Source: Cheilinus undulatus
Lineage: Eukaryota > Chordata > Actinopteri > Labriformes > Labridae
Assembly: GCF_018320785.1 (NCBI RefSeq)
Contig: NC_054877.1
Location: 10,683,030-10,747,029, forward strand
Length of the DNA stretch: 64,000 nt
Direction of reading: 5' to 3'
The notes under the pieces were generated by a model, which saw nothing but the letters and a program-made list of their open reading frames with translations, made no database searches and was not told the DNA's origin. The position numbers and the translations under genes were made by a program. The first letter of the stretch is position 1; every line of letters begins with the position of its first letter. This document shows, piece after piece, positions 10,234-59,914 of the stretch.

Positions 10234-10535
10234 TGCAAACACCAATGATACAACTGAAATTAATACAAATTTAGGCCAAAATACCAAACCCAATTACCAA
10301 TCTAGACACTAAAAGGCACCCTGGATTGTTATCTTTGAAGGTGAGAGACTGAGTGATGTTCTGGAAAAGTGTTGTTTTAGATCAGTCAGTTGTTTCACTT
10401 GAGTTTAAATGGTTAAAACTGTCTGTTTTTTTTATTATTTTGCAAGTAAAGGTAATAGAAACGGAAGATCCAAACATACTTTATTAACTTTATATTATTT
10501 CATCTCTCATCCTCAGGTTCATCTCTCCTCCCAGC

Positions 10536-17717: not shown

Positions 17718-18117
17718 GAGTTGCATTTAGGTAATTAATACAACTTCTCTTAAAGTCCTATGTAGCATTTATGTGATTTTTCTAATGAAATAGGTAATAA
17801 ATAAATAGTAGTCTAATATCAGTGGTTATATTTTCTCCTTTTCACCTCCTTGTATTCTAATATTGTCATACAAACCCAAACCTACTGTAATTTATATCCA
17901 GGCCACTGTAAAAACTAACATGAATTTTATTCAGAAATACTGAGTTCTATGTCGAAATGAACAGGTTAAATCCACTGACCCTTTCTTTTTCAAAACATTT
18001 TCATAAATCATCTCTTCATTTCACATGAAGCTTTGAAACAACATCATTGGAGTGACCCACATTTTTGTCAGGGAATTATACAAAAATGAATTAAACACTG
18101 ACTAAATTGCATATTTT

Positions 18118-22401: not shown

Positions 22402-25400
22402 ATGAGAGTTCTTATAGGTATGTACATTTTATAAGAAATAAATTGTTTTTATAAATCGCTTGGAAAGGTCAATGTGACATAACGATACCGGCTAACTGTT
22501 AGCTAATGTTAGCAGACGTACATATTTGTGCTATTAAACTGCGTATGCGACTTGTGCGAATGGAAAGTACATGTGGAAAATAGCGTCTCAATGTGTGGTT
22601 TAAACTATTAAACTGTCTTCTAGTTTAAAAGTTGCTTTCACAAGCTAAGTTTGCTAAAGTTATGCAGTCTTGTTTTGTAAGCGTGTAAACTGCGCATGCG
22701 CACAGACCTGGCAGTCTTATTTATTGACTTAAATGAAATAAATTCAAGTAGTCTGCTTCATTTTATTCAGCTCACACAACCTTATAAAGGCCTTTTCAGG
22801 GGAGTTGGTTTGGCGCATCCAGCACATAAAAATAGATATACATTCATGTAAGATAAAGAGCAAACAGGACCAAAGCTGAGTATTGGTTAAAATCAGACTG
22901 ATTTATGGATAGAGTGAATAAAGATCGGTGCCGGATTTAGCAATTTTTGGGCCCCAGGCGAACACAGGCATGGGGCCTCCGCATCCATTACTCCCCATTT
23001 TAAATGTTTATTCATCAAAGAAAGTCCTTCCTGTAACTTCATGTAATACCAACCAAAAATGACTGTCAAGCAAGATTTTTAGTATAGAAATGTCCAGGTA
23101 GATTTTAAATCTAAGAGTCCACAAACCCGCCTCGTGATACCATCATGTTGTTCTTTTGTCATGTGATGGCATACAATCAAAGTGACATTTTGAACTGCAA
23201 TCACTTGGTGTGAAAAGTGCAATTTTTAATTTTTGGTGTCAAAAGGCCAAGTAAAACAAGAAATATGATCCTTTTCATTTTAAATAAAAAATACTTTAAC
23301 ATATGGGGTACACTGCTCCATACTGTACAGGACTGGCACTGGTCATTTTTTCATAACTTTGGCATTTTATGTTTTTTTTTTTTTTTTTTTTTTTAAGGAA
23401 AATAATAGTATATTTTACTATGTGCTAATCACTGATATATCCATCTTTTTATGTTTGTATTTGTATGACCTTATAATTTCCACATTTTTATTACAAATGA
23501 TGCAATCCATGGCTGTCCCGCCTTTACTTCTAAAATCAGTTTTATGATATAGTTAAAGGTCTTGTGCCTGTAGTGTGACAACCATAAATGCATTCATTGC
23601 AGATGATTGCATCACATATTCTGTTTGCACAGAAATCAAAAAGACACATGATCTATTGTATAATAAACAGGGGAAAATGTTTTAATTGTACTTTCTCACA
23701 TAAATCTGCTCTTTCTTCCATACTTATTCTGACTGATAAATGATGGTTTAGTGATGTTGGTCTTTTTTTTTTAGCTGTTTTGGTGATTTCTCTATGTTGT
23801 CTTACTTGTAGGAGGTGGGTCTGGCTTTGTGGGTCGTGAACTGACTCGCCTTCTCAGATCAAAAGGTCATGAGGTTACCATTATATCTCGCCAGCCTGGT
23901 CCAGGAAAAATAACATGGGTAAGATGTCAGATTAATTCAAAGTTGTACGCACAGAGCAGGGACTAAGCATCCTGAAATGGTTGCTCTAATTTTTGAACGT
24001 TTTAAATAATACTACAATCTACATTCATGTACCTTTCTTTTTAAACTTCTACAGGGTGAGTTGGAGTCAAAAGGCCTCCCACCATGTGAGGGCGCTGTCA
24101 ACTTGGCTGGAGAGAATCTGATGAACCCGCTACGATGGTGAGAGTGACGACAATTAACCAGATCTTTTCACTAATATCAAACGTTATATATCAAAAGCCA
24201 GTAGTCTGTGGACACCCTTCAAGGCCGGTTCCCTTGAGGAATGTTTTTCTGAGATTGGTGTAGAAGAGGATACAGTGCATTCAGAAAGTATTCAGATCAC
24301 CTTCACCTTTTACTATTATGTTATGTTGCAGCCTGATGCTACAGTCAAAAGAAAAAAAAAAAAGATTTATATTCTCATTAACCTACACTCAGTACTCCAT
24401 TGCGACAAAGTGGAAACAGAATTTTTGAAAAAAAAATATATGTGTTTGTTTGTGGTTTCAGGTGGAACGAAAGCTATAAAAAGGATCTGTTCTCCAGTCG
24501 TATTGACACAACTAAAACTCTGGCACAAGCTATCGCTGCTTCCCCCACTCCTCCTCATTCCTGGGTGCTGGTATCAGGAGTAGGCAAGTGTCTGTCTGAT
24601 GTCTGTTCTGTTTTTGTGAAATCAGACTGGATACACTTATTGATTATATAAAAAATTGAAGCTATGTTTTACTTTTGTTTTGTCCCACAGCTTGTTATCA
24701 GCCCAGTCAGACAGCAGAGTACACAGAGGACAGTGAATGGACACCGTTTGACCTCCTCTCCAGACTTGTGAAAGAGTGGGAGGCCTCTGCACTTCTTCCT
24801 GAGAGTGTGGCAAAAACCACCAAACAAGTCGTCATCAGACCTGGTTTGTAAAAGAGGCTTCATAGTAGAGGACATCATGATAGAACTGTTGTATTGGGAT
24901 GAATTAGATTGCTGGTGTTATGGCTGATGAGAGTCTATAAATAGAAACTTTACTTTCATGTACCTTATTTTGACAAGTATTGTGCAGTAACTTTGTTTGC
25001 TGAGTATCCACTCTTCCTTTCCTCCATCAGGGGCAGTACTGGGTCGTGATGGAGGTGCCATGAAGCAGATGTGGCTTCCCTTCTGGCTCGGCCTCGGGGG
25101 CACTCTGGGTTCAGGAAGACAGCCATTTCCGTGGATCCACGTCGCCGACCTGGCAGGAATCATCGCTCACGCCCTGGAGCCCCCTGCCGACACGCCGCCA
25201 ACACCTTCACAACAGGTGTTCAACGGAGTCGCACCTGCTCTGAACACCAACTACGAGTTCACTAAAGAGCTGGGCCGCGTCATGAGGAGGCCCACCATTT
25301 TCCCTGTACCTGGTTTTGTTATGAACACTCTGATGGGCTCTGAGAGGGCGATCGTTCTCACGCAGGGTCAGAAAGTCATACCGCAGAGGACTCAAGAGGC

Positions 25401-25461
25401 TGGATATCAGTACAAATACCCGGACTTGACCTCAGCACTGAAAGAGATTGTAGGCAGTTAA
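22402..25461 (+). CDS. sdr39u1: Epimerase family protein SDR39U1, 6 exons
   Basis: Exons are 22402-22417, 23812-23918, 24055-24137, 24462-24583, 24691-24843 and 25031-25461, giving 303 aa. This is a short-chain dehydrogenase/reductase of the atypical epimerase type. The N-terminal nucleotide-binding loop GGGSGFVG (residues 6-13) is split by intron 1. Later family landmarks follow in the human order: EGAVNLAGEN-like segment, SWVLVSGV, RPGAVLGRDGGAM, FPWIHVADLAG, NGVAP and GQKVIPQRT. The C-terminal part is the DUF1731-type tail. Its substrate is not established. Intron 4 begins with gcaagt at 24584, not GT; only this junction keeps the frame (GV to ACYQP), so it is a GC-AG intron. Length matches the vertebrate protein. 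Intron 3 holds a Tc1 end fragment. Confidence 0.95.
24271..24430. mobile_element. Lone terminal fragment of a Tc1-like transposon
   Basis: The wording 'acagtgcattcagaaagtattcagatc', with later 'tatgttgcagcctgatgc' and 'aaagtggaaacagaatt', is the left end of a common fish Tc1 family. The body and right end are missing. It lies in sdr39u1 intron 3, ending about 30 bases before exon 4. Confidence 0.6.
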
Positions 25462-29114: not shown

Positions 29115-30029
29115 TTATTTTGGCTCCACAGTCACAGAGACCTTCTCTGGTAAAATCTTCAGGAAGATTGCACCCATATTGTTAATGAGTGGAAACATCC
29201 TCTCTGTGAAAGTGTGTTTAAAGGTATGGATGTGTGTGTTAGCATCAGGATCAGAGAACGACAGCTCTCCTCTGTCATAGTCCAGATTCACTCTGATCCT
29301 TCTTGGATATGTCTTCACCGAGAGAACAGTGAATTCATATGGTGGTGAGAGTGCCTGGTATCCATCAGCCAACCCTATTCCCCAGAAACCAGACCATGTC
29401 TTTCCCTTCCTCTCAGCAGACTCTGCTGAAACACCCAGTGCCCAGTCTACATGGTTTCTAACCTCAATGTCCCAGCTGTGAGTCCCTGAGTTAAAGCCCT
29501 CTGAGCCCAGGACAGAGCAGTTATAAAATCTCTCTGGATTATCAGGAAGTCGCTGCCATTCTCCTGTTTCCACAGTGGTCAAATCCTCAGACAGGATGAG
29601 GTTTCGTCCAGCAGTGTTTGGGTCTAGAATGATGGGCGTGTAGGAAACCAGGTCCTTCATCTTGTTCCAGATGTTGAAGCCCAGGTTGCCCAGGTGTTTG
29701 GCCTGGTCTATCAGAGCTCCAGCCTTGTAGTTTTTCAGGAAGGGGACGTCTTGGGCTACCAGCTCGTGCTCTGTCACCATGCCTGTGTGTGAAAGAGCTG
29801 CTATCTGCTCCTTCATCCTCTGCTTTTTCTGCTCCTCTTCCTCCCTCAGTACACGCAGCCGTTCCTCCTCTTCCTCTGCTAGAAACTGGTGAAGCTTCTC
29901 AAACTGCTCCTTAATCTGCTTTTCCGTGTGTCGGGCCTGGACCTCGATGTGATTTAAAGCTTGATCAAACTCTATTTTAACCCTTTGATCAACCATTAAC
30001 TTTTCCTTCTCCATTACCTTGGATGCCAT
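29115..30029 (-). CDS. RING-less, B-box-less TRIM35-like paralogue
   Basis: An intact 304-aa single-exon frame. It opens with MASKV, as its neighbour does with MASKL, but then jumps directly into the coiled coil ([18 protein letters not shown]). The RING and B-box, about 110 residues in the neighbour, are gone. A second in-frame loss of about 25 residues lies between KNYKA and GALIDQ. The PRY-SPRY (B30.2) domain is complete, from [12 protein letters not shown] to the C-terminal VSVTVEPK, and differs from the neighbour by almost nothing. Without RING it cannot act as an E3 ligase of the usual kind, but it could dimerise through the coiled coil and bind targets through B30.2. It may be a decoy or a decaying copy that is still open. 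Confidence 0.75.
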
Positions 30030-30844
30030 TTTGTCTCAGAGTGGTGCTGTAGATTAAACAGACAAACAGGAAGTTGCTTCTCATCACTGAAAGTTATTTT
30101 CACTTAGATTCTTTTAAATGCTCCTTCAGTACCTTGTTAAAGTGGTGGTGTTCCCAGTGTCCCAGTCTAACCAGTATCCCTGGGCTCTGTCTTTCTGTCC
30201 TCTTTCAGTGGATGTCAGCAGGTTTGATCCTGTAGGCTTGTCTCTCCGTGTGCCTCTTGAGCAAGTGAACCAGGGTGAGGGGGCTGCGCTTGCTTCAGAA
30301 CAGGAATAGGAAAACAGGAAAAGAGAGAGGGCGGATCCATCGTCAGTCATTTCCTGTCCATGTTTTGAGATTTTACATATGACAGAGGGTGACTGTGTGT
30401 TTAAAAAACAATTCACCATTTATGGAAAACAAAATGTGCATCTCAATACCTTCTCTGTCTTGTTTAGTGCAGCTGATTAAACATGAAAACAGTCAAAAAT
30501 ATGAGCTTTATATAAAGGCCTCCTCAGAATGAGGCAGCGTGTGGCCGCTGTGACGATCAGGACAGTCTATGGAAGAAGTTAATGTAGTTTTTTTTGTTTT
30601 GTTAATGTATTTTTTTTAGTTATTATAGTTTTGACAGAACAGCTGTTTGAATAAACAGAATAATACCTCCTTCTGCACTACAAGGTCACTGAGGTAAAAC
30701 GGAGCTGTCCACGCCCTGCAGGGCTGATTCTCCGTAGCTTATAAGATATTATCAGAAGAGTTTCCTTTGGTTCTACAAAGAAACAATGGCTTCTTCTTCT
30801 GAAAACAGTTTACAGAACAAGAGGGAAATTTGTTTTTTTGTATC

Positions 30845-33800
30845 ACATTTTTTCCTGGTTTTATGACTTTTTGCTGTAACTGTAATGCATGCAAACCAAC
30901 CAAGGATATTGATAGATGTCCATGTTCATTTTTATTCTGGTCACATTTGATCTCATGAGAATATGAAATCCTGTGTGTGCGGGTAATCGTCAATGTGAGG
31001 TTGTTGGCAGGTGTGTGCTCTCCAATGGTCTAACAGTCTGGCTATATAAGATTATGTTATACAAGTCTGAACATTTGAACATTATGTATATTTTATATAA
31101 TGTGTGTGTAATTCAAAGAGTAAGATTTAATGGAAGCTCACAATAATGGTAATTTTTAGGAAAAAAACCTTAATAATAATACTATTACAAACAATACATT
31201 TTATTCATAGAGCACTCTTCTAAATCAAAGTTACCAAAATTGAGCCATCACATTGATCAGATCAAACTGTTTTTCTTTAATGGTTGTGTTTTTGTCTGAA
31301 GGACTAATGATGAGCAGTTAAATAAAGAAACTCAGGGACAGATGCTTTTACACGTTTTATTTTCCTATAGATCACAAAGCTGCTAAACCCTCATGAACAT
31401 TTTATTGTCAAAATATACTGAAACTATACATGTTTAACAAAGCACACACAAGATAATTCATAAAACTTCACACAGCATTTTTAACCAAGACACTTGAGTA
31501 GGTATTGGATTTATACAGACTAAAAAAATCCTTATAATTATAGTGCATTTATATGTAAAAAGGAGTTTCCTAAAGGGTTTGTGAAAAAGTCTCCTCATGT
31601 GTTGAGAACATAGAAACTCTTCCTCTTTCCCTCTCTGCACTGTGCACAAAGTTTCAGCATGAAGCATTTTAATCAATACCTTCATTTAAACAGATGAAAA
31701 AGAAACATTAAGGACACTTTTAAGTAAAACTAAACATAATGAAACAAAAAATAAACTGAATTGTCAAAAACAAATATTTTCTTGTTTTTTGAAATCCATT
31801 AAAGATAGTGAATCAAAGCCTGTACATTTAAACTGATCGATATTTAAAGATTGTAGCTAAACAGATAATAAGTCACCAAATGAAAAAAAAGAAGGAAATG
31901 ATATAAAAGGAATAAATGTGATTTGTTTTAATTGTCAAAGCTTCCTCAGTGCTCTTTGAATATCTTTGATTTTTCATTTAAACATTTTTGCAACTTTAAA
32001 CAAAACAGAGAGAAAAAATGACTGGAAGTTTCTTTTAGATCAAATCTGATGTTTTCTTCTGTTGATCTCAACTCTGTGTTAACGACAACCAGCAGGCTGA
32101 CATTAAGATGAGAACATCTGAAAATAACGAGAGTGATGCTCTTCATCATCGTGGTTTATTTTGGCTCCACAGTCACAGAGACCTTCTCTGGTAAAATCTT
32201 CAGGAAGATTGCACCCATATTGTTAATGAGTGGAAACATCCTCTCTGTGAAAGTGTGTTTAAAGGTATGGATGTGTGTGTTAGCATCAGGATCAGAGAAC
32301 GACAGCTCTCCTCTGTCATAGTCCAGATTCACTCTGATCCTTCTTGGATATGTCTTCACCGAGAGAACAGTGAATTCATATGGTGGTGAGAGTGCCTGGT
32401 ATCCATCAGCCAACCCTATTCCCCAGAAACCAGACCATGTCTTTCCCTTCCTCTCAGCAGACTCTGCTGAAACACCCAGTGCCCAGTCTACATGGTTTCT
32501 AACCTCAATGTCCCAGCTGTGAGTCCCTGAGTTAAAGCCCTCTGAGCCCAGGACAGAGCAGTTATAAAATCTCTCTGGATTATCAGGAAGTCGCTGCCAT
32601 TCTCCTGTTTCCACAGTGGTCAAATCCTCAGACAGGATGAGGTTTCGTCCAGCAGTGTTTGGGTCTAGAATGATGGGCTTGTAGGAAACCAGGTCCTTCA
32701 TCTTGTTCCAGATGTTGAAGCCCAGGTTGCCCAGGTGTTTGGCCTGGTCTATCAGAGCTCCTGAGGGCAGCTGTGGATCCTCTAGCAGGGGGCACTTCTG
32801 GACTCTTTCCACTGCAGCCTTGTAGTTTTTCAGGAAGGGGATGTCTTGGGCTATCAGCTCGTACTCTGTCGCCCTGACTGTGAGTGAAAGAGCTTTTATC
32901 TCTGCTATCTGCTCCATCATCCTCTGCCTTTTCTGCTCTTCTTCCTCCCTCAGTACACGCAGCCTTTCCTCCTCTTCCTCTGCTAGAAACTGGTGAAGCT
33001 TCTCAAACTGCTCCTTAATCTGCTTTTCCGTGTGTCGGGCCTGGACCTCGATGTGATTAAAAGCTTGATCAAACTCGATGTTAGCCCTTTGATTAACTCT
33101 TAAATTCTCTATTAAGGGCTGCAGAGTTTCCTGAAGTTCCTTCTTGTGTTGTTGAGCAGCTTCATCAACGGGTTTAAATCTGTGGTTGGCATGCTTTTCT
33201 GAATCTCGGCAAATGAGACACACCAGCTCCTGATGGTCCAGACAGAAGAGTTTGAGTCTCTCATTGTGCAGACTGCAGAGATTCTCTGGAGATCTCTTTT
33301 CTTCCTCACAATGGATCTGTAATGGCAAGTCAGGATCTAACGGACCCCAGTGTCTGCACTTACAAACAGGACACTCCCTCTTATTCTTTTTGTTCTTCTT
33401 CACACACGCTCTACAGACATTGTGACCACAGGACAGGATGACAGGATCATTAAAGATGTCGTGGCAGACCGGACAGCTCAGATTATACATTAACTTGGAC
33501 GCCATTTTGTCTCAGAGTGGTGCTGTAGATTAAACAGACAAACAAAAAGTCGCTCCTCATCCCTGAAAGATATTTTCACTTTGATTCTTTTAAATGCCCC
33601 TTCAGTACCTTGTTAAAGTGGTGGTGTTCCCAGTGTCCCAGTCTAACCAGTATCCCTGGGCTCTGTCTTTCTGTCCTCTTTCAGTAGATGCCAGGCAGGT
33701 TTGATCCTGTAGGCTTGTCTCTCCGTGTGCCTCTTGAGCAAGTGAACCAGGGTGAGGGGGCTGCGCTTGCTTCAGAACAGGAATAGGAAAACAGGAAAAG

Positions 33801-44914: not shown

Positions 44915-47900
44915 ATGAGACGAACGAGAGCTTCCAGAAATAAAAGTCAGAGTGCAGAAGAAAATGGTGGAGACCAGTCTAAAACAGGTTGGTGAATTGA
45001 TTATTTACCACTGGAAGGTTAACTTAACAGTGTAGCTGGTTAGCTGCTAACATTACGTCACATGTGGACATGTCAGGGCAGAGGAGGGAAGGACAATGCA
45101 TGTTTATGTTTGTTTATTTCAAGACGACTTTTCCGTAGTTATGAAATATTGACAACATATTTGTTAAAATTGATGTGTAGTTCACAAGGTATAAGCAAAA
45201 AGTAAAGCAGTTTAATATAAAAGCCTTGTAATGTAACCTAAAACATCTTATAGTTTCTTTTATTCACTGCGTAAGACGTGATAAACCAGATTGTTTTGTA
45301 ATTATGGAAGCTGTAAATATCAGTATCGTTATTTGGAATAATAAATCATAAGACTTAGAATAATGTTGGGCTAATTAGAATTTACATTTAACGACAGTGT
45401 TTGGCAACACAGGTTTTCCTAATAAGTAGTTACATTACATCTCAACAGAACTACTTTGCACCATTATTTATTAGTGTAGTTATTCTCGGATTTATTTTAG
45501 GGATGCACCAATTCTGATACCAGTATCTGGTATTGATTTGAAGTACTTACCAAAATTACAGACACTGTGTTCTCACTGTTTGAGTAGTTAAGCCAAGTTA
45601 GAGCCATGTCTGCAGTTTAAGGGGAACCTTTAACACAGGTGGCAGTGCAAAGAAGTGAAGCCCACTTAAAACTATGCACTGATATGCTGTCAAGAGGAAG
45701 AATGAGGAACATCTAGTAAAAGTAAAACAAAAAACTATTCAGTAACTATTCATTTTTTTGTCCTTCAAAATAATAACTAATAAAGTTAAAAGTTCTAAAT
45801 TAGATAAATAAGACGGGAAAAAAACAAACTTTATTAACCCCCAAGGAGAAATTCTGTTTTTATTTTATCAGCCATGCTGCATACTTTTCTTGTTATTAAT
45901 ACACACACAATCACAAACCTATGATTATGCACTAAAGGAGAGATATCAGAGTGAGGGGCTGCACTCAGAAGAGCTCCCAAGCAGGGCTTTGTTGCCATGC
46001 TCAAGAGCAGTAACTATTTCCATACTTTGATTAGCACTGGGACTGGAACCAGTAACCCTTCAGTTCCCAACCCAAGTGCTAACAGGCCTGAGCTACTGCC
46101 AACCAATGGTATTTGGATCACCGTGCACAGTGAGAATAAAACATGACAAACTGTTCTCTCTCTGTTTGTGTGGTGTGTCTAGTGTGGCAGTGGAAAGGAG
46201 ATCAAGGTCAGTGGGTACCATACTCGCCTTCAGACTGTGCTTTGTTGGACTCTGCGGTCTCTTCAGGACAGACCTCCGTCACTCTGACCCTTGGGCCTGG
46301 GAAGTCCTATGAGGTTGACCTGAAGAAAATGGTCCAGATAAATCCAGTTACAAAATTCAAGAGGAAGATTCGCTCTCAGACAGTAAAAACAGGTATTGTT
46401 GTTTTTTTAATGTCAGATTTCTTTATTTCCTGCTTTTTTCCTTGAGAAATCCCTTGCTTGAACTTTTACGATCACAATTCATTCTTTACATAAAAGTCAT
46501 ATATCTGTGATAGAGCTGGACAATAAACTAACTTTCAGTGTCAATTATTGTAGAATGGCTTTATTCTGTAAAAGTCTTATTTTTCATTTTTCAGAAAGTG
46601 CAAATGACGCTGGGGACTTAACAGCTCCTAATGGCACAACAGTTGAAGTAAAAGAGGAAGAGGAGGACACGAATGAGCAACCTGCAGCAAAAAGGAGAAA
46701 GGCACAAAGCAAACAGGAAAGTCAGATGAAAGTAGAAGAAATAAAAAGTGAAGGTAATCTCACATTCGTAAACGTCTGGTTATGCCCTAAGTAAATGAAA
46801 TGTGATTTTAAAGATGTGATGTAATGGCAATCTCATAAGCACAGTATCTTTGGCTTTAATTTAAAACTTTTTTTTCTGATTAAAGGATATGTTGTCACCT
46901 GCGATATAAACTGGATGTCAGTTGTACTCATTAGGTCTGTCTTGTCTCTGTATTCATTGAACAGAGGTTGTAAAGATGGTGGTTATGAAAGGAAAAGCTC
47001 CAGTGGACTCTGAATGTAAAGCCAAACTCGGAAAGGTACGCTGTCTTCAATATTTCCTCACTAATCATATGGTTTGAGACCTCTTGAAAGATCTTTGCTC
47101 CCCATTCAGTTACAGTTCCTCTTTTAGCTTAACCTTCAAGTCTGTTTCATACTGGGCGTGTGGCAGCTGCATATCAGCAGCATCACTGCTCGATTTTTAA
47201 TGTGGCTTGAATTTTAACAAGTCGGGGCTTTCAGACTGCAAGTGTAAGTACAGTGTCTTACACGGAGAGAGTCTAGAGTATAGAGGGCGTGCCTGATTTA
47301 TACACGTAATGTATGTAATCCATATGTCCAGATTGGTAGAACACGTTTGCAATGTGTTTCTTGATGACCCTGACTAAAGCCTGGTACACAATGTGTGATT
47401 TTGGCCTGTCCCAGATGAGAGATGACCAACTGCAGTGATATCTTTGGTCGTGGCTCTGAAATGGTGGTCCTTCGTTGCGCTGTGGGACAGGTTCACAGAC
47501 CGCTGTTGTCATATTCGTACGACCAAAGGTAGCCTGGGATAAAATTCTGAAAGCATCAGAAATTTAGGATGACCATCTCACAATGTGATTGATGCTATGA
47601 TCTACGTTGACTTACCAATCAATGGGAATGCAAGAAGAAATGACAAAATGATAAACACAACACTGGCACTAACAAACATTTAGCATTAGAATGGAGACGA
47701 TGCCAGAATGCAGAAGTTGGTGGGATTTCAACTAGGAGGAAAATTTCATTGTACAGTCTACACACATCAAACTACATGTCGTGTCAGATTCATGGCACAC
47801 AGTGTAGCATGCCAGAAACATATAAGATTGTAGGAGGCTTAAGACCACAAGTCAAAATGCACTAGTCTAATAAAGTTGTTCTTGAAACTTCAGCTGCTGC

Positions 47901-50900
47901 AGGCACGTTGTTTCCACAGTAGAAAAACAAAAAACAAAGTAAAATTTCACTTACAGATTGTAGTTTTCAAAGTAAAAGCCTGGTTTAGCATTTCTGTGGA
48001 GAAACTCTCCTCCTTTGTGCAGAACGCTAATATGCAGAATTTTTCCTGCCTCAGTTTCACAATGAATGAAGTCACTTATGGGGAGATTTATAGAGGGGAA
48101 ACCTTTGAAAAAGACAGGGTTGTAACAGTAGGGAGAAAGTTACACATAGCCTACACTCTTATAGTATGAAAGCTGTGACAGCGCGATCTGGAGGGGACAC
48201 ATTTGGCAGGCATATGACATATACCAACATGCAACTCAGAAATGAGTGTTAAATGCAGTCTTAGATCAGTCAAAAAGTTATCTTATTTTAGTTAAAATTG
48301 GAAATGTTAAAGTTTAATTTTTCCAGAAGTCAAAAAGTCAAAATATAGGCAAAAGTTAGTGAAATAAACACTGACACTGATAACTGCTTTTGGCAACAAT
48401 TAAGTATGTCAAATGCTTAGGTTTGAGAGTGGCTCCAGCAAGTTTCAAATCTAATAGGAAAAAGAGATTAGATGGCTGATGGAGGTACTGTGGCTCAATA
48501 AGTAGAGTCAGTCAGCTCTCAACCTGGAGGTCATGAGTTCAGTCTCCAGCTCCTGCAGTCACATGTCGATGTGCTCTTTGTCAAGACACTTCACCCCAAT
48601 TTGGTCCCACTGCTGCATCAGTGGTGTGTGAATGTGTATGGATGCATATGAATAGGACTGACTAACTCTCTACATAGCAGCCTCTGCTATCAGTGTGTGA
48701 ATGTGGAGTGAATGAGTAGCTGTGGCTTGTGGTATAAAAGGCACCGAGTAGTCAGATGACTATTCAAGCTCAAATCCATTTACCATTTTAATGAAAATTA
48801 TAAGTTGCAGGCAGCTATATGTACAATAACTTTTTGTGCTGATTTGGTCTTGTGCTTTTTAGTTTTTTTCACCTTTGTGTGATGTTCTACTCTGTGTTAT
48901 GTGCAGATCATTTAAGTTTTGTAGAAATGCTTTCATAAAACATATTTGTCTTGAGAAACTAACCTAAAACTAACTAAGTCATACATAGTTAATTTGATGT
49001 CCTGTACATTAGTAACTGTTCCAACTCTCTTTTAGGCTCATGTTTACAATGAAGGAAATGAAGTTTATGACGTGATGCTCAATCAGGTAAAATATCTAGT
49101 AACATTTAATTACAAGTTGAATCACATGGATCTGCAAAGTAACAAATATATCCTAGAAATGTTTGCCTACTTTGCTAAGTGTATATGTGACATGTTTCAT
49201 CATAGCAGTTTATGTATTGTTTCTTTCTTTCTCTGTCCTATTGTGTAGACAAACCTTCAGTTTAACAACAACAAATACTACCTGATCCAGCTGTTGGAGG
49301 ACGATAACGCCAAGGCTTACAGTGTGTGGATGAGATGGGGCAGAGGTGAGTTTATGTGCCCATATATATTATTATGGTGGAATGTTTATTTTTTTTTTAT
49401 ACATTTCTGAAATTAGAAGGAAATTAATAAAAGTCTGCTGAAAGTATAGTGTCATGGATTTTCTGGGTTTTGTTTTGATTTTAGTTGGAAAAGTGGGTCA
49501 GAATAGTCTGACAGCCTGTGGCGGAGACTTGATGAAAGCCAAAGACGTCTTCAAGAAGAAGTGAGTTTGTGCAATCAAAAAGTGTGTATGTGGATGTCAA
49601 ACATTGATTTAACAACATTTTACAACTTATTTGTTGTTATTTACAGATTCTTAGACAAGACCAAGAATGAGTGGGAAAACCGAGCGTTATTTGAGAAAGT
49701 GGCGGGAAAATATGACATGGTGTTCATGGACTACAGCACAGACCAAAAGGCAAAGAACAACATCTCCTGTAGATAATATAACATGCATTTTCATAACTGA
49801 AAATCATTATTATGAAAATATTGATTTTGAAGTGAAGTCTGACATAGATGTTCTTCACTGTTTCAGGAGGAGAACCAGACCACAGTGGATGCAGCACCCA
49901 AAAAGAGAATCTCAAAGCTGGATATGAAGGTCCAGTCGCTCCTGGAGATGATCTGTGACCTCAAAGCCATGGAGGAGTGTGTGTTGGAGATGAAGTTTGA
50001 CACTAAAAAAGCTCCTCTTGGTTAGTCTGATAGTAGCAGACCTCTACGGGAATTTACCCGGACTTCTACCTTTTAAATCTTTTAGTTTCAACAACATAAG
50101 ATTCAAAAATTGACAATATTTTTAGATTCATATACAACAAAAACATTCAAAGTTGTCCCCAATCTCTCAAAGTTGCTATTTTAAATTAAAATATCCACCT
50201 GAATACATGAGCCAACTCATCTCAGTTCTAAACAAGCTGGTTTTATTGATTTGCGTCATATTTTAAGTTCAAAATTTCTTTTATGTTTTCAGGAAAGCTG
50301 ACCACAGAGCAGATCCGTGCGGGCTACACGGCACTGAAGAAAATCGAGGACTGTTTGAAGAAGAAGGGCAGCAACAAAGACCTGCTGGAAGCCTGCAACC
50401 AGTTCTACACTCGAATCCCCCATGACTTTGGGTAGGGAAAATGTGACTGTACAGCTAAAGAGATGCACTAAAGTAACTGGAAAACTAAAGGCTATAGAGT
50501 CTTAAGAGTTTAAAAACTAAAATCTTGAATTCTCCAGGTTGAGAGTGCCTCCAATCATTCGCACAGAAGATGAGCTGAAGGAGAAAATTGCACTATTAGA
50601 GGTAAAGATTCTTCTTTAATTGAAGTCTACTGTTCCTATTTTTCTGTTTCAATCAAGTCTTCAGTCCAGACCTTAATATCTTTATTTTTATTCCATTTTG
50701 ATTCTGTTTTCAGGCTCTGAGTGATATCCAGATAGCAGTGAAAATGGTTCAGTCCAGTGAGGACAGTGACGAACATCCTCTGGACAGACAGTATAAATCC
50801 CTCAGATGCCAGCTGCAGCCTCTGGACTCTGGCTGTGAAGAGTACAAGGTTTGATTTACTACCAACAATCTTTAACATTTAAAAATAGTGTGTTAATTTG

Positions 50901-53900
50901 CAAGATCACTACTACAGGCGTACAACAGGACAATCTGAGATTGTAAAGAAAAATAATATTTCGGCAAGCCGCCAAAGCACAGAAATCCCCTTATTGCCTG
51001 CTGCGACTTTGCAGTTCTGTACTTACCCTTTCCCCTCTGCTTTCTTGAGGAGCAGAGATTCATGGCTGTAAAACAAAACTTACCATGAATTTCACAAAGA
51101 AACCTTTGATTGGCCTATATGGAACTGCTCCATGGTTTTCTAAAATGCCAAAACTGGCACAAAATTTGCAAAATTTTTTGACAATCTTGAGCAATCCTAA
51201 ATAATAAGAGCCAAACAGCCTTACTATAGTCAGTGGAGGCTAGTCTGGCAGAGGCAGATGCAATCCTGTTAAAATAGTCACAGTGGGCAATACAACAGTA
51301 AATATAGACAGTAGGAAATAACACTGGCACACAGCTGATCATTTCAAAGGCCAATGGCAGCAGGGACAAATGAGCCTTTTGTTTCTGACTCCAATGATTG
51401 CATTAAGTCCCCCCTCTTAAAAGTAGCACAACATTATGGCATGAAATCCTGAGAAATGTAACATTACCAAAAATCTAAACCTTTTGTGACAGATCAGCAA
51501 TGTCCAGTTAAAATGTTGATGTTGTCCTTTGACTATATTGACTCTGCGTCTTTGCTCAGCCATGTTTATAGCATGTTATCCTTAACTCTGCAGCCTATAG
51601 AAGCCATGACATAACCTTTACAGCTCTTTATTATGCCAAAAATCTGATAACAATATTCAAAGAGGTTTATGGTGTTAGACACAGCGCTTGGTGCTTGAAC
51701 TGACTTTGAGCTGTGATCTTGCTCAACCCTATGGGAATATCTCCAAGAAGTAAATGCTGTCTCCTTTGCCATCTTACTAATTAACCTGGCTACTTCTGTA
51801 TGCACACTGACACCGTTCACCTTCCTCTGGAACGCAGCTACATAGAAACAGAGAGTGCACATAATTTTGGGATTTTCTTAGTTTTATGAAACAGGGAAAT
51901 ATGCATTTTTTTTCAGAAATTGATTACTTTTATTGAAAAATGAACAGATTACTCAAATTACAGCAAAAGTGTGTTTTAGTTGCTCAAGACAAAAAAGTAA
52001 TATGAGTACCCTAACACCACCTTTCTCCACCATTTTTCTGCAAGGCACCCTTAAAAATTTGGAAAAATCTTAGATCACCCCTATCAAAAATGTAAGAAAA
52101 TGTACATTTTAGATCCCTATGACTGCTGGGAGATATATGCAGTAACAGACTCAGTAAGATTAACCTCTAAAGCAGTGGTTCCCAGCCTTTTATACATGGA
52201 GCCCCCTTTCTGTTCCTGGTCAGTGCTGAGCCCCCACGACCCTCATGGAAGCAAAAAAAAGATGCCATGCTGTCAAAAACAGCACAAATTTGAACTCTTT
52301 CCTGAACAAAACCCAAAAAGAGGGTGTTATTCTTTCCAAGAGACCTTTGAACACACTACATATTACGTGTTTTATCTTGACTTTAATTCACATGGTGCTA
52401 AGATGATTTTGACAACCTCAGAGTGGACGGACCCCCTGGTCGGGAACCAAGGCTCTAAAGCACTCTTGTGAAATTATTAAGATGCCTTGGACGAAATGCA
52501 TTGTGGTCGTGTAGACCTTAAAAACCCACTTTAATGGGTTTCTCATTGAATGAATGTCTGCCCCCAACATTGTTATGATTTCAGGTGTATATGAGACAAT
52601 TTTGGTTATTTGTGCAGGGATAGCTACATGATAATTTGTGGTTACATATTGAACATTTTGAAGGCACCCCAGGGTGCCACGGCGCCCCGTTGAGAAAGGC
52701 TGCCCTCACTGACTACTTTATAATGTGTTACCCCAACACTGTTTTTAAGAATCCTATGATGCACTCATGACCATACGTCGCAGAAACGTTATCCCTGTTG
52801 TCAAAGTCTGAAAGGCCTGTCTTAGTCAGAAAAGACTTCTAAAACCACTCAGCCTGCTCTTGGCTTATGTTGTGGTTATTTCTGTAACAACAGAAGCACA
52901 AGATCAGGCCTCAGGGGACCCACTTTACATGGGCTTGATGGTATTTGCAAATCAAATTGAGCACAGCAGGGAGGTGCACAGTCTTCTTGCTCAACCACAG
53001 GGTTTTTCTTGAGTTGTTCTTTTATACACAGTCACCAAAGTCAAATTCATAACTGTAAGTTTTACATTGCTTCTGGTTTAAACAGTAAATACTCACCCAT
53101 GTTCATATAGGCAGCTAATTCAGGCAGCTAATTGTGTTTGTTAGACTCAAATAACAAACCAGGAAGTAAAGAACACCTGTCATATGTGCTGTGTTGTACC
53201 TAGTAGTCCAGCCAGCACAGCCATTTTAAACCAATGTCATAAGTGCATTTGTTAGTGATCGTACTACACCAAAACATGTTTATTCAGTTAATTGCTCCAA
53301 TAATCTTGTATTTTACTGAACTTTTATGTGAACAAATAAAACCTTTACATGAAAAATTAACCCCAAAATATATAGAGGGAACTTCACCAGTGAGGTAGCC
53401 TGCATAATACTGTTTTATTTATTTAATTCCATTGGTGCTTAGTCAAGTGTGCCTCAGTTGCTTTAATTATCAATCATAAATGTTTACCTTAGCTCCAAAA
53501 AAAGTCCCACAGGCTGGGTTTGAACCCCTGGGATGCACCACTAGGCTACTGCCCCATTACTCTAATTTTGTACAATGCTAAATATTCTCTCTGGTGAAAT
53601 TTCACAGTTTTATGGTCTCTCTCATGCTTGTTATGCTCAAGTTTTCTTGAAAATAAATCATGACCCGTTTTGTTCTGATGCCTGCCCCGTATTAAGGCAG
53701 GGTCATTTCATGACTAAAATCATGTACTGATAGATGAAGTTTTACAGTGACCCAAAATAGTTAGCTGAATGAAGCCAGAGTTGCAGTAATCTGGTGATTG
53801 TTTGTGAATATGAAGTTACTTTTATGCAAACCTTTGTCCTGTCTGTGTAAAGGTGATAGAAAAATATCTTCAGTCGACTCATGCACCCACCCACTCTGAC

Positions 53901-56900
53901 TACACCATGACCATCCTCGACATCTTCTCAGTGGACAGAGACAGCGAGAGCAGCAACTTCCAGTCACAGATGCACAACAGGTAAATCACAAATACCACAT
54001 ACAGTTCTTCAAAACTTCATTTGTTTAATGAACTAGATAAGATGTGGTATTTATTGTTTGTTATTCACCGCTTGGGTCTGTCTGTCTTTCAGGACTCTAT
54101 TGTGGCACGGCTCCCGCCTGTCTAACTGGGTTGGCATCCTCAGTAAGGGGCTCCGAGTGGCCCCACCTGAAGCCCCCGTCACTGGTTACATGGTAGGACA
54201 GATGGACAGAAAAACATACTCTAGTCCTATCTTCACTTTTTATTTGTTTCAGAATTACTCCTAAAATTTGGCAGTATTTTATGGAATCATGTTTCTTTGG
54301 TTAAAAAGAAGCTGACAATTTAATATGAGAGTGCTATATGATATAATAGTGCTATAATCACTCAAGACTTTTAGCAGCTGACATCAAAACATCTGTCTTG
54401 CCTTGGGTTCAGTGGCATAAGGAACATATTTCTTAATGTCAGTGCTAAATACACACTCTTGTCCACAAATTCCCTGAAGTAATATTAAACTATTGATATA
54501 TTTATATATTCTCCTGTTGTGCTGTGGGTTGCACTAAGAGGCAAGACTTAGTGATTAGTGATAGTTTATTGTTGTCTTAATAAGGTAATCACTGTGCTCC
54601 CTACTGCCACCCACTGACATGGAGGAGTATTACTCTACCAGCCACTACATTGCTGGCACCAGCTGAACAATAATGTGCAGCTACTAAATTATATTTTTTT
54701 AACCTACTATGTGAAATTAGATAATTTTCCTCAGCACACCTGGCAACCTCACGGCACAGTGGTTGAAAAACACTGCTTTAGTACATAACTGCAGTAAAAC
54801 AATAAGAAATCTCTCATCTCTCTCTGATGAACCTCAATTTCTGTCACCCACTGCTGCATGCTCTCTCTCTTTCTCTGTTTTTTACTGGATGATGGCAGCG
54901 CTTTTGGATAAAATATTACAAATATGAATATATTTTGTTCACTGAAAATGCCCCTGTTTCTCTTCCATATAGTTTGGGAAAGGTATCTATTTTGCTGACA
55001 TGTCTTCAAAGAGTGCCAACTACTGCTTTGCCAGTCAGAGCAACCAAGTTGGGCTTCTGCTTCTGAGTGAGGTTAGTTGATTTATAAAGTTTCCATATCT
55101 TTTTTCTTTCTTCACCTATTCATACCTGTAAAATATCTGACAAGGTAAATTTATAAAGTTAGCTGCATAACCTTGTCCTACTGTATTTCTGGGTGTGATG
55201 TGGATCTCTTAAGGCTTTATATTTCTAAGTATGCATGTAGTTTAGTTAACGCTAGCGCTTTCCTAGAAATACCTCGTAATTATTATTTTTCGGTTTCTCT
55301 GACATAATCATGGTTAGCAGGTTAAAAAGTTGTCTTTAGATTATTTCTGTGGGTGTTTGGTAAAGTTGTTCCTGTTGGTTCAACTGGTAGATTAAATTTT
55401 TGCAGTCCCTTTCATTTTTGATCTTAAAGATATAAAATGACCAATACTTTTAACGCTAAATTAGATCTCATGTACTGTTGTAAAATTAAGAATATTCCAG
55501 CTTTGGCTGAAACTTGTGTGCAGAAGTGAACAGAAATATTAGCCGAAAAGAGGCTTGTCCTCAAAACTTCCACAATAAGGTAAACAAAAAAATGTTCTTT
55601 TTGCAGGTTCAAACCTTCCTGTTATAACATTGAACCATTAGATTTTATTTCTAGCCAATTTAAACAGTGTAATTATTTAAATATTGGTTGTATCTGTTTG
55701 AGTTGCTGACAAAGTTAGCAGGAGAAACTTGAAGACTTTTGCTGTTAAGATGATTTGTGCCAGTAGTCGGTGCTAAGAGTTTGTTTATCTCAGCTTCTGC
55801 AGACTTGCCAAGCTTAGAGCCCACATAAACATTAAAACCAACCTGGTTTGAGTATAACACGACATGCTGGCCCCAGATGTGATGCAGTGCTGTTGAATGT
55901 CCTCGTTCTCTCTGTGTCTGCGTGGTCACAGGTCGCTCTGGGTGACTGTAATGAGCTGCTGGACGCCGACTACGAGGCCAATAATCTGCCGACTGGAAAA
56001 CACAGCACCAAAGGTCTCGGACAGACCGGACCTGACCCCAAAAACTCAGTCACTCTGTGAGTCTGTCACATCACGCTCACACATTTCATACAGGCTGAAC
56101 ATTGATTTAACTGTGCTTACACAATGAAAATCATTACATTATCTGAGCATGAGGGTTTACATTAGGAACGAAAATGCATGTTCATCAGCACGGAAATACT
56201 ACAGATGTTTGCTTTTATCAAAGTATAATTTGATATTACCCCTTCCTTTCATGTTAACAGTCCATATATCAAATGTCTTAAAGGTTTGTGTTTGTCAAGG
56301 ATTTAAAGTGAGTTAAATCAAAGACGTTTTTTTCTATTTCATCAAACTAAAAGTTTGTTAAAATGATTTAGAATATTACATGGAGCTCAGAGACCCCAGT
56401 ACCCCTGCAGTGTTTGGCTAAATTGCTCAAATTATTCATTAAATCTGTGCAGACCTTTTCATTTAGGTCTGTTTTCAAGCACTTTATAGGCATGTTTGAT
56501 GGTTTAATAACACCAAGAGGCGATTCAAAGTGAAAGCACTAAAACGAAAGTCCAAATACTAAACGCTGACCTCTGTTTGCTCTTCACTGAGTCATACATT
56601 AATGGACCGGCCTCCCTTTGCTCTCGTTTGTTCTCTGCCCTCTCTCCCGCTCTGCTGCCTCTTCTCTGTGGATCTCACAATTTGAAATAATAATGTTTTA
56701 TTACATAACAGTCATCTGAGTGGGAAACACCGTTAATTTCAACAAGTGATGTCCTCCAAATCTCAATCTAATGGACCATATTTGATGGGTGCTCTGTTTT
56801 TGGCTGCAAAGACATTATTTGGTCAAAAAACAATGTTTAGAGACAAATGACTTGCATATCATGGCCCCAGGCTCTCAGATTTTATGAGACTTGTATAGGA

Positions 56901-59900
56901 TTAAACAGAGTGTTTTAAAGGGATTTAAGTTCATCATTGTTGGCAGATGTAAAATTTCTGCCGTTATTTAAGTGACAATTTTAGCGGTGAATTTAAGCAG
57001 AATGTAGGGTAGGTTTTAGCAGAACCAACAGACTGTCACCAGTTTAGGTTCTATTGTTGTCCATCTTCATCTTTAAAGTGGGGGTATTATGCCTTTTTTT
57101 TAAGGCTTTACATATCTCTCTGATACCCACGTAGTAGCTTCACATGGTTCACAGCTCAAAAAACTCCTCATGTTTCTCACACTGGCGTCCTGAAAAACCC
57201 TTAGTCTGCCCCAATCACTGTGTTTCCTAATATTTTTCTGGAGTTTTATGTTTAGTGGTTTAACAGCAGTGATTTAGCTCATCATTTTTCTCAGTGCTAT
57301 TAGAAACAGGGGCTTTTTAGTTTGGGCTTATTTCCATTCTTTTGGGGTATAGGGGATATTATCTTTTATTTAAATCTATGTAACCAGGAAAGCCTCATTG
57401 AGATCAAGAATCTCTTTTGCAAGAGAGTCCTGGCCAAGATCGGCAGCAGCACAACTAACAGAGTTACAGACATAAAACATAGCAATTACAAATACAGATC
57501 AACCAACGCTAAGTCACAGAGCAAAAAGTCCTAACCTGATGCATCTTCCTCCAACACCTTTAAGCTGCATTAAAAAGATTTAAAGAGACCAACTCCCCCA
57601 GACACAGAGTCTCCTGCTGCAGATTTCAGGCTGCAGCAGGATTGTATCTGAAACTTCTACCCGTTTCATGATGGATTTTGGGAACAGATGAGCAAAAATG
57701 AGTCTACAAACTTAGTCACAGAGTGAAGACTGTAGCTTCCAGCACTTTTCAATAGAGTTGTTCCGATTCTGATACCAGTATATGTCCAATAATACGTCCG
57801 ATACGGCTTAAAATGCAGGTATTGGTATCAGCGAGTACTCAAGTTAATGCAACGATCCGATACCGTTCGGTTTAACTTTATATTTGACTCAGTTTAGCCA
57901 TGCTAAATGTTAGCGCTATAAACCGGAAAACACTGCCAGGAAACACTGCATACGTGAGCTACCCTTTTTGGAGCAGTGAAGAAGAACCAAAGAACCCACT
58001 GCAGCAGCAGTGCAGCTAGCTGTTGTGCCTTTCCACTGACACTATTGATGCCTTTGGATCCTTTGCAGCAGCATTTTCAGGGAGGCTGGAACTCGTGTGA
58101 CTTTTTGGGTCTTAAATGATTAAATCCAAACCAGTAAACCTGATATTGAACGTCTTTTTATCCATTTTAATCCAGGTACAATCATTTATTACCACTAGCC
58201 TGCTAACCGTCGTATTGTTTACTCTTTGTTAGGGTCTGTCAGCCATTAGCAGGCTGTTCTGTAATCACATCATGCTGCCGGAATAGAGCATAATGGAGAG
58301 AGAGAGATAGAGAGAGCCTGTGATGCAGCTCCCTGTATTCTTATTTTAATATTTAGCAGTAAAACTCAATAATCAGCAGAAAAACAAGTTCAGGGTTACA
58401 GTGATGCTGTACACTAACAATTCTATTTGTTCAGCCATGTTCTGAGTCAAATATACAATAGGTCTAAAATAATTTGCTAGTCTGCACAGTCAGTCCAGAA
58501 AGTTCACACTAGTATCGGATCGGTACTCGGTATCAGCCAATACCCAACATCTTGGTATCAGAATCGGTATCAAGAAGTAAAACATGGTATCGGAACATCT
58601 TTACTTTTCACGTGATTAAAATCACACAAGTTTGATGGAAGCAGATTTAGTATAGCCTTGTTAACTAGGACATGCCAGTGATTTAGCCTACTGGTTGTCA
58701 AAGAAGACCACCTGACTTGGTCATAAAGAGTACAATGATGAGTTAAGATTTGTTAAAAACCTCAGTACCCCATGGCATACAGTATCCAAAGATTTAAGTC
58801 CTTGAGTAGATGCATCCATGTATAAAACATCACTGTAATCAATCTGAGGCATAAAAGTGACAGAGACAAGTCTTTTTTAGCAGTAAATGAATAACAGAAC
58901 TTATCCCTGAAATAAAAACCGAGCCACAACTTAAACTTCTTTACAAGTTGCTCAATAAGAAGCATAGAATTTAAAGAATAATCAATCAAGAACCCAAGGT
59001 ATTTATAAAAAGACACAGACTCAATCACATCACTCTGAGATGTGGTAATACCACACAGGTTCAGAGGTTTTGTCTTTGAGCTTGAAAACATCATGAGTTT
59101 GCAGGAGCAGAACAGTAAATGACCGTGTCATCCACATACAAATGAAGATATGCATTCGGTAAATTTTGACCGATACTGTTGATAGAAAGTGTAAATAACA
59201 GCGGTTCCACTAATGAGCCCTGAGGCACTCCATTTTTAACTTCAAGACATTTAGAAGTGAAGCCTTCAGCCCCCACACACTGTGATCTGTTTGATAAATA
59301 ACCAAACCAACAAACAGATTGTTCTGACTGACCGATACAGCGTCACTTGTCTTTCAAAATGACCTAGTCAACAGTATCAAAGGCTTCTGACACATCACTG
59401 TGTTTTTCTCCCTCTCCCAGTTAATTATCAGTGAGTTTACTGGTTATTCTTCCGAGTTAACTTTAAAGACCAGTTCAGCCCAGTGATTTAGGAAGAGAGG
59501 AGCTGAAACTCTTGGTTGCTTTAATAATTCACAAGCTACAACTAAAGAGTGCATTTAAGAAGGGTTTAATAAACATATCAGGATTTTTTTCAGTATTGCA
59601 GTACAGAGATAAAGGTGACCTTTTAGCACTTTTTATCTTTAAAAAACCTGTGCTAATTTCCCTGTTAGCAAATCATTTTCACTTTGTTCCAACAAGAAAA
59701 ACAGTCTTTCAGCTAAGGCTAACTGCCTTTTTTTCCCATCCCTCTCTTTCTCAGGGATGGAGTGACGGTTCCGATGGGGCCAGGGGTAAAGACCAAGGTG
59801 GCGAGACAAAACGCTTACTCCCTCCTCTACAACGAGTTCATTGTTTATAACCCAGCACAGACTCGCATGAGGTACCTGCTGCGAATCAAGTTCAACTACT

Positions 59901-59914
59901 CATCTCTGTGGTGA
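44915..59914 (+). CDS. parp2: Poly(ADP-ribose) polymerase 2 with an added WWE domain, 17 exons
   Basis: Exons are 44915-44987, 46183-46392, 46595-46753, 46965-47035, 49036-49086, 49249-49345, 49485-49560, 49647-49749, 49867-50020, 50293-50431, 50538-50601, 50714-50848, 53853-53980, 54093-54192, 54973-55071, 55932-56056 and 59755-59914, giving 647 aa. It uses NAD to add ADP-ribose chains at DNA breaks in the nucleus. Order: short basic N terminus; a WWE-like domain (residues 25-94, exon 2); an acidic linker with the nuclear signal KRRK; WGR (about 165-275, RWGRVG); helical regulatory domain (about 290-420); and ADP-ribosyltransferase domain with the H-Y-E triad at His492 (LLWHGSR), Tyr526 (GKGIYFADM) and Glu622 (YNEFIVYN). 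Human PARP2 is 583 aa and has no WWE. Intron 8 starts with gcaaag (GC-AG). Confidence 0.95.
45499..45560. mobile_element. hAT-like terminal fragment
   Basis: AGGGATGCACCAATTCTGATACC resembles the ends of a common hAT family in vertebrates (AGGGATGCACCGAT type) when shortened to its first 15 bases. No partner end is visible, so this is a remnant in parp2 intron 1. Confidence 0.4.
45820..46100. repeat. Probable retroposon-derived repeat
   Basis: Phrases such as 'ttattaacccccaaggagaaattc' and 'gggactggaaccagtaacccttcagttcccaa' cut down from a common fish repeat that ends in 'gagctactgcc'. It occupies the end of parp2 intron 1, about 80 bases before the WWE exon. Confidence 0.4.
48485..48785 (+). 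mobile_element. tRNA-derived SINE
   Basis: The head contains an A-box-like TGGCTCAATAAGTAG (about 48491) and a B-box-like GAGTTCAGTCTCC (about 48535), both for RNA polymerase III. The body 'ctcctgcagtcacatgtcgatgtg' and the tail 'caaatccatttaccatttt' are typical of a widespread teleost SINE. It lies in parp2 intron 4 in the sense orientation and is moderately diverged. Confidence 0.7.
52173..52452. mobile_element. Short hAT-type MITE with 8-bp target duplication
   Basis: The left end CAGTGGTTCCCAGCC and the right end (reverse complement CCTTGGTTCCCGACC) are flanked by exact 8-bp direct repeats CTCTAAAG at 52165-52172 and 52453-52460, the hallmark of hAT insertion. The 280-bp element is noncoding. 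The 123-codon frame across 52100-52471 is an artefact. A further hAT-like right end ('gttgagaaaggctg') follows at about 52690. Confidence 0.8.
57060..57330. repeat. MITE-like teleost repeat
   Basis: The left edge 'aaagtgggggtattatgcc' and the interior 'gttcacagctcaaaaaactcctcatgtttctc' are wording of a common fish MITE. The ends are not resolved. Confidence 0.35.
57370..59400 (-). mobile_element. Non-LTR retrotransposon (LINE) remnant with reverse transcriptase pieces
   Basis: On the minus strand, 59400-59280 holds a degraded SEAFDTVD motif, 59276-59091 holds [14 protein letters not shown] and YVDDTVIYC (core RT motifs), and 59094-58762 holds the thumb-like [13 protein letters not shown]. 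Wording at 57376-57540 ('aagcctcattgagatcaag') belongs to the 3' part of such elements. The group is the jockey/CR1/L2/Rex1 cluster; the exact family is not certain. The 5' half is missing, the frame is broken by several stops, and a hAT-like element splits it at 57752-58602. It lies in parp2 intron 16 in antisense. Confidence 0.75.
57752..58602. mobile_element. hAT-like element inserted in the LINE
   Basis: The ends AGAGTTGTTCCGATTCTG and AAAGATGTTCCGATACC (reverse complement) are flanked by exact 8-bp repeats ACTTTTCA at 57744-57751 and 58603-58610. Near each end, imperfect 'ggtatcggatcggtactcgg' wording recurs. The interior is noncoding. The size and the 8-bp duplication indicate a nonautonomous hAT. 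Confidence 0.75.

What the first reader, a model, noticed from the sequence alone, without database searches (positions are those of the whole stretch)
46183..46392. PARP2 carries a WWE-like domain in a symmetric exon
Exon 2 of parp2 encodes 70 residues with Trp26, Trp28 and Trp35 ([11 protein letters not shown]), Tyr38 (VPYSP), then [12 protein letters not shown] and KFKRKIRSQ. This follows the WWE order seen in RNF146, Deltex and several mono-ART PARPs: W-x-W, G-x-W-x-x-Y, V/I-D-L-x-x-M-x-Q, R/K-K-I/V-R. WWE domains of RNF146 bind iso-ADP-ribose. Human PARP2, from memory, goes from a basic disordered N terminus to WGR with no WWE. The exon is phase 1 at both ends, so it could be skipped or gained without a frameshift. 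A DNA-break-activated PARP with its own PAR reader could bind its own product or anchor on existing chains. I do not know whether this is already described in other fish.
Basis: partly seen in the sequence, partly recalled or inferred. Interest (0 to 1): 0.88.

Follow-up and report, generated by a model that had tools for sequence, protein, structure and literature searches.

The report
Fish PARP2 with a WWE domain
This fish's DNA-repair enzyme PARP2 carries an extra small domain of a type that usually grips ADP-ribose; the domain is real, but its presence in fish PARP2 was reported in 2014, and what it does there still needs a test.

Summary
Window 46183-46392 is a 210-bp, phase 1-1 exon of an intact 17-exon, 647-aa parp2 gene. 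It encodes a near-complete WWE domain: Pfam PF02825, E=3e-19, 69.6 bits against a cut-off of 21.1. The protein reads WWE-WGR-PARP_reg-PARP. Of three WGR-bearing places found in this genome, only this one has a WWE hit nearby.

It is not new. Perina et al. [quoted passage not shown]

The ligand pocket looks intact: 6 of 7 contact residues named for HUWE1 are identical. RNF146's Tyr107, tied to iso-ADP-ribose selectivity, is Trp here, as in HUWE1 and TRIP12, which prefer ADPr. DTX1 also has Trp yet prefers iso-ADPr, so the selectivity call is only a lean.

Most likely function (inferred): a reader that holds PARP2 on existing ADP-ribose and so aids elongation or branching. Human PARP2 binds PAR through its N-terminal region (PMC6089979). 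No fold was obtained (server busy, 14 requests) and no RNA-seq was available.

The parts
44915..44987 (+). parp2 exon 1: start codon and 24 codons of N-terminal leader, ends in phase 1
   Evidence: ATG at 44915, donor GT at 44988
46183..46392 (+). parp2 exon 2: the WWE domain (protein residues 25-88), phase 1 at both ends
   Evidence: Pfam WWE E=3e-19 alone and 5.2e-18 in the full protein; AG/GT borders
46595..46753 (+). parp2 exon 3: acidic then basic linker (PAAKRRK), phase 1 at both ends
   Evidence: the PAAKRRK stretch aligns to PAKKTRR of human PARP2
46965..47035 (+). parp2 exon 4: linker into WGR (KGKAPVD)
   Evidence: aligned to human PARP2
49036..49749 (+). parp2 exons 5-8 (49036-49086, 49249-49345, 49485-49560, 49647-49749): WGR domain and following linker; exon 8 ends at a GC donor
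   Evidence: (WGR E=3.4e-24, residues 182-259)
49867..50848 (+). parp2 exons 9-12: mainly the PARP regulatory helical domain
   Evidence: PARP_reg E=1.8e-46, residues 296-426
53853..59914 (+). parp2 exons 13-17: mainly the ART catalytic domain with WHGS, KGIYFAD, SKSANY and NEFIVYN, stop TGA at 59912-59914
   Evidence: (PARP E=4.8e-78, residues 441-641)

Best explanation
The exon is a genuine WWE domain at the N terminus of an otherwise ordinary, intact PARP2, an architecture already reported for non-mammalian PARP2. Shown here: the exon, its frame, the WWE profile match, the intact four-domain gene and the conserved ligand residues. Inferred: the domain binds an ADP(-ribose) unit of PAR or of mono-ADP-ribosylated targets, probably at chain ends in the manner of HUWE1 and TRIP12; this holds PARP2 where PARP1 or PARP2 has already worked and so favours elongation or branching on existing modifications. 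In mammals, which lack the WWE, the disordered basic N-terminal region alone does the PAR binding.
For: WWE match with E=3e-19 and a full WWE-WGR-PARP_reg-PARP protein. Of seven HUWE1 ligand residues named in PMC11269756 (passages, section 15), six are identical here: W28=W1619, Y67=Y1658, Q76=Q1667, N78=N1669, T81=T1672, R85=R1676; F83 replaces N1674, and HUWE1 N1674T had no effect on PAR 11-mer binding. The comparison is not trivially met: a PARP14-like WWE in the same genome (L018) has H, E and V at the Y1658, Q1667 and R1676 positions, and PMC10450202 calls the PARP14 WWE diverged and devoid of PAR binding (passage). W28 stands where RNF146 has Tyr107; the Trp-bearing HUWE1 and TRIP12 prefer ADPr to iso-ADPr. 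Human PARP2 is activated by PAR and binds it through its N-terminal region, which branched-chain synthesis needs (PMC6089979, section 9). Architecture in fish, frog and others: PMC4245714 section 3.1.1.
Against: No binding, activity or expression data for this domain. No fold model (14 requests, all met a full queue). TRIP12 has nearly the same pocket as HUWE1 but binds PAR 11-mers much more weakly, so pocket conservation does not guarantee PAR binding. DTX1 also has Trp at the selectivity position yet prefers iso-ADPr to ADPr, and this domain has K29-G30-D31 where HUWE1 has F-D-D, so it has one acidic residue there instead of two. The chain-branching role is carried over from human PARP2, which lacks the domain.
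Confidence: 0.5

Rival explanations
1. The WWE domain reads internal iso-ADP-ribose in PAR, as RNF146 does, so PARP2 binds along chains rather than at their ends.
For: The shared core Y, Q and R ligand residues are conserved; DTX1, with the same Trp, prefers iso-ADPr to ADPr.
Against: RNF146 Tyr107 is Trp28 and Arg110 is Asp31 here by the alignment; these positions are credited with the iso-ADPr selectivity in PMC11269756. No RNF146 chain appears among the 12 PDB sequences matched at E up to 1.
Confidence: 0.2
2. The WWE fold is kept as a protein-protein or purely structural module (for instance with a ubiquitin ligase or HPF1), and nucleotide binding is incidental.
For: WWE domains were first proposed as interaction modules (Aravind 2001, cited in PMC4245714 and PMC2964712, seen only as citations), and TRIP12 with an intact pocket binds PAR weakly.
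Against: Six of seven ligand-contact residues are kept, among them the adenine-binding Gln and the phosphate-binding Tyr and Arg, which a purely structural module need not keep.
Confidence: 0.15
3. The exon is an optional cassette: mostly skipped or tissue-specific, so that fish make both a WWE-bearing and a human-like PARP2.
For: Phase 1-1, skip product stays open at 577 aa; its donor CAG|gtattg scores second lowest of 16 and its acceptor pyrimidine fraction, 0.59, ties for lowest of 16, using a donor matrix recalled from memory. A stronger GT candidate sits inside the exon at 46206.
Against: Weak sites are common in this gene (exons 9, 12 and 16 have donors of similar or lower score); the domain's coding integrity implies use; no transcript data.
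Confidence: 0.12
4. Chance open frame or gene-model artefact: intron sequence mistaken for a domain.
For: None found.
Against: E=3e-19 to a curated WWE profile, correct splice borders and frame on both sides, and a published record of WWE in fish PARP2.
Confidence: 0.02

Closest known systems
PARP2 of non-mammalian metazoans with N-terminal WWE domain(s) (Perina et al. 2014, PMC4245714, section 3.1.1 read)
   Same: WWE at the N terminus of a WGR-PARP_reg-PARP protein; fish named among the examples
   Different: No difference seen; the paper's text gives no sequence, exon structure or ligand residues (its figure was not available here)
Human PARP2 (PDB chains 6x0l_P, 6usj_U and others)
   Same: WGR, regulatory and catalytic domains align from query residue 124 to the end (E=1.8e-232)
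   Different: No WWE: nothing in the matched PARP2 chains aligns to residues 25-88; human PARP2 binds PAR through its short N-terminal region instead
HUWE1 and TRIP12 WWE domains (6miw, 9bkr)
   Same: WWE domain with Trp at the adenine-stacking position; 26/61 and 22/63 identical to the fish domain
   Different: They sit in ubiquitin ligases, not in a PARP; F83 in place of N1674/T825; K-G-D in place of F-D-D or R-D-D
RNF146 WWE domain
   Same: WWE domain, with the Tyr, Gln and Arg ligand residues shared (own-genome copies L003, L005)
   Different: Tyr107 and Arg110 of the iso-ADPr site are Trp and Asp here; 19/66 and 18/66 identical
Clade 3 WWE-bearing mono-ART PARPs (PARP7, 11, 12, 13, 14)
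   Same: WWE and ART domains in one protein
   Different: Those lack WGR and the regulatory helical domain and belong to another clade (PMC4245714, PMC2964712, passages)

Membership tests
WWE domain (Pfam PF02825) | Profile score above Pfam's curated cut-off | tested here: met
   69.6 bits against 21.1; positions 2-66 of 67
WWE domain (Pfam PF02825) | Conserved Trp-Trp and ligand-site Tyr, Gln and Arg | tested here: met
   W26, W28, W35, Y67, Q76, R85
WWE domain (Pfam PF02825) | Half-barrel WWE fold | not tested
   Structure prediction asked for 14 times and the queue was full each time (first, last)
WWE domain (Pfam PF02825) | Binds PAR, ADPr or iso-ADPr | not testable with these tools
   Needs purified protein
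PARP2 (clade 1) | WGR, PARP_reg and PARP domains in that order, best match to PARP2 | tested here: met
   best PDB matches are PARP2 chains, 776.7 bits against 459.4 for the best PARP1 chain
PARP2 (clade 1) | Catalytic His-Tyr-Glu residues (recalled definition) | tested here: met
   LLWHGS at 489, SKSANY at 532, NEFIVYN at 621, aligned to human LLWHGS, SKSANY, NEYIVYN
RNF146-type iso-ADP-ribose reader | Tyr107 and the basic residues that contact the distal ribose and phosphate | tested here: not met
   Trp28 and Asp31 at the Tyr107 and Arg110 columns; residue roles from PMC11269756. Lys175 lies outside the domain and was not compared
HUWE1/TRIP12-type terminal ADP(-ribose) reader | Trp at the stacking position with the Tyr, Asn, Thr and Arg phosphate contacts | tested here: met
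   6 of 7 named HUWE1 residues identical; N1674 is F83. Ligand preference itself not testable here

The most novel reading that the evidence does not exclude
Non-mammalian PARP2 is a built-in reader-writer: its WWE domain docks on ADP-ribose ends made by PARP1 or by other PARP2 molecules and thereby primes elongation or branching, with exon-2 skipping giving a second, human-like isoform; mammals lost the domain and rely on a disordered region for the same job.
Probability: 0.25. Interest if true: 0.6.

Novelty: already known. Interest (0 to 1): 0.3.

Why it matters
Fish such as zebrafish are used to model PARP biology and PARP inhibitors. If fish PARP2 carries a folded ADP-ribose reader that human PARP2 lacks, its recruitment, chain branching and trapping may differ from the human enzyme. 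It also makes a direct test possible: does the WWE do the job that the disordered N terminus does in human PARP2?

Tried and rejected
Fold prediction of exon 2: never accepted, queue full each time, so no fold search was run. Dating gain or loss with other vertebrates: no vertebrate genome other than the window's own is held by the tools I had, so I relied on PMC4245714. That paper contradicts itself on birds: one sentence lists bird among WWE-bearing PARP2, another says no PARP2 is found in any sequenced bird; I therefore leave birds out. Origin of the exon: a FastTree of 20 WWE sequences puts the parp2 domain next to a HUWE1/TRIP12/clade-3 group (support 0.878 for the larger group and 0.543 for the group that excludes parp2); with about 65 columns, partial exons and midpoint rooting I draw no conclusion on its source. 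Noncoding RNA near the promoter (the RNase P RNA next to human PARP2 is recalled): no Rfam family reached its gathering score in the window. A search of the L018 peptide against PDB did not return PARP14 at E up to 0.1; its label PARP14-like rests on a PARP catalytic match about 1 kb downstream (C16:31786798) and on my reading of KH-like sequence upstream.

Rows dropped: of 17 WWE places in the genome (one is the window's own exon, L004), 13 others entered the alignment, with L018, L020 and L021 left out; one search added L018 and L021; L020 was never used because its match runs through a stop and looks interrupted. L015 and L019 entered as partial exons, L007 and L016 were cut at their exon ends, and for L015 I kept only the part after the stops. 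Gene labels for the own-genome WWE loci (dtx, huwe1, trip12, rnf146, clade 3) are mine, by likeness to the PDB chains or from recall.

Full report
What is there. The window holds a complete parp2 gene on the + strand. From the sequence I assembled 17 exons from 44915 to 59914 that give one open frame of 647 aa; 15 of the 16 introns are GT-AG and one is GC-AG. Without it the frame stays open and gives 577 aa. Pfam finds WWE at residues 25-88 (5.2e-18), WGR at 182-259 (3.4e-24), PARP_reg at 296-426 (1.8e-46) and PARP at 441-641 (4.8e-78). The exon alone scores 69.6 bits for WWE against a cut-off of 21.1. In the PDB the exon matches DTX1, TRIP12 and HUWE1 WWE domains best (E 5.6e-9, 6.8e-9, 1.8e-8), with Drosophila-type Deltex at 2.3e-4 and ZAP at 0.12; 12 distinct sequences passed E up to 1, the last two of them immunoglobulin or fusion chains that I take for chance.

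Orthology. The best PDB matches of the whole protein are PARP2 chains (E=1.8e-232, 776.7 bits); the best PARP1 chain scores 459.4 bits. The alignment to human PARP2 begins at fish residue 124 and chain residue 55, so the human chain has 54 residues (any tag included) where the fish protein has 123; there is no room for a WWE. Listed WWE matches of the whole protein go to TRIP12, HUWE1 and DTX1, not to PARP chains (best 60 of 70 shown).

The rest of the genome. The window lies in a 1.17-Gb genome held as G000. A WWE search returned 17 places at E up to 0.001, the window's exon being one (the tool calls such counts lower bounds). A WGR search returned 4 matches at three places, on C14, C3 (two exons) and C13, the last being this gene. 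None of the 17 WWE places is on C3, and the only one on C14 is an RNF146-like gene about 3.9 Mb from the WGR match. So, as far as these searches reach, parp2 is the only WGR-bearing PARP of this fish with a WWE. A third search, for the PARP regulatory domain, did not complete.

The ligand site. PMC11269756 (passages, section 15 read) describes the WWE pockets of human E3 ligases: a Gln holds adenine, a Trp (Tyr107 in RNF146) stacks on it, and Tyr and Arg hold the proximal phosphate; for HUWE1 it names Trp1619, Tyr1658, Gln1667, Asn1669, Thr1672, Asn1674 and Arg1676. In the alignment six of these seven are identical in fish PARP2 (W28, Y67, Q76, N78, T81, R85) and Asn1674 is F83. As a contrast, a PARP14-like WWE in the same genome (L018) has H, E and V in the Tyr1658, Gln1667 and Arg1676 columns; [quoted passage not shown]

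Which ADP-ribose unit. RNF146's preference for iso-ADPr is credited to Tyr107 and to basic contacts; HUWE1 and TRIP12, with Trp at that place, prefer ADPr and are thought to read the terminal ADP moiety. Fish PARP2 has Trp28, and Asp31 in the column of Arg110. This leans to the HUWE1/TRIP12 type. Against it: DTX1 also has Trp yet prefers iso-ADPr to ADPr; the two aspartates of HUWE1 and TRIP12 are Gly30 and Asp31 here; and TRIP12 binds PAR 11-mers much more weakly than HUWE1 with nearly the same pocket. So the specificity, and even strong PAR binding, cannot be settled by sequence.

Mechanism. PMC6089979 (passages, section 9) shows that human PARP2 binds PAR through its N-terminal region, is activated by PAR and makes branched chains; removing that region abolishes these. 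In the fish enzyme the same N-terminal place holds a folded WWE, followed by a linker with a basic PAAKRRK stretch. The most economical reading is that the WWE is the ADP-ribose reader of this region and the basic linker is the part that mammals kept. This is inference; no binding or activity has been shown for this domain in anything I read.

Inclusion. By a donor matrix recalled from memory, exon 2's donor (CAG|gtattg) scores second lowest of 16 and its upstream pyrimidine fraction (0.59) ties for lowest of 16 with exons 11 and 16. Skipping is therefore conceivable, but the gene has other weak sites (exons 9, 12, 16) and there are no transcripts here.

Is it known? Yes. Perina et al. [quoted passage not shown] The same section later says that PARP2 cannot be detected in birds. 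PMC2964712 and PMC1266365 (passages) place WWE in clades 2 and 3 or subgroup 4 and do not, in the passages seen, mention it for PARP2. Searches for work on the domain's function in PARP2 listed no title or abstract start about it; most of the listed papers I did not open, preprints are not held and many subscription journals are missing, so absence from print is not claimed.

Verdict. A true observation of an already described architecture. What is added here is the exact exon and gene model in this fish, the lean to HUWE1-type rather than RNF146-type ligand recognition, and a clear set of tests. Interest 0.3.

Noticed in passing
window 49750: parp2 exon 8 appears to end at a GC donor (AAG|gcaaag); using the next GT at 49769 instead would shift the frame and bring a stop at codon 287.
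   Followed up: partly
window 29118-30035 (-) and 32159-33511 (-): Two near-identical TRIM-like genes in tandem; the one at 32159-33511 has RING, B-box and PRY-SPRY, the open frame at 29118-30035 shows only PRY-SPRY, as if one copy had lost its RING and B-box.
   Followed up: partly
window 10488-17342 (+): Exons of a rhodopsin-type GPCR (7tm_1 in two of three open frames tested); from recall it resembles a leukotriene B4 receptor.
   Followed up: partly
window 24991-25458 (+): Open frame with DUF1731 (E=1.6e-18), from recall the C terminus of an SDR39U1-like epimerase.
   Followed up: partly
window 18106-18702 (+): DDE_3 transposase-like open frame, Tc1/mariner-like by recall.
   Followed up: no
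L018 501-671: A WWE next to a PARP catalytic exon (PARP14-like) that has lost the Tyr, Gln and Arg ligand residues.
   Followed up: partly
PMC4245714 section 3.1.1: The paper lists bird among WWE-bearing PARP2 homologues but then says PARP2 is not found in any sequenced bird genome.
   Followed up: no
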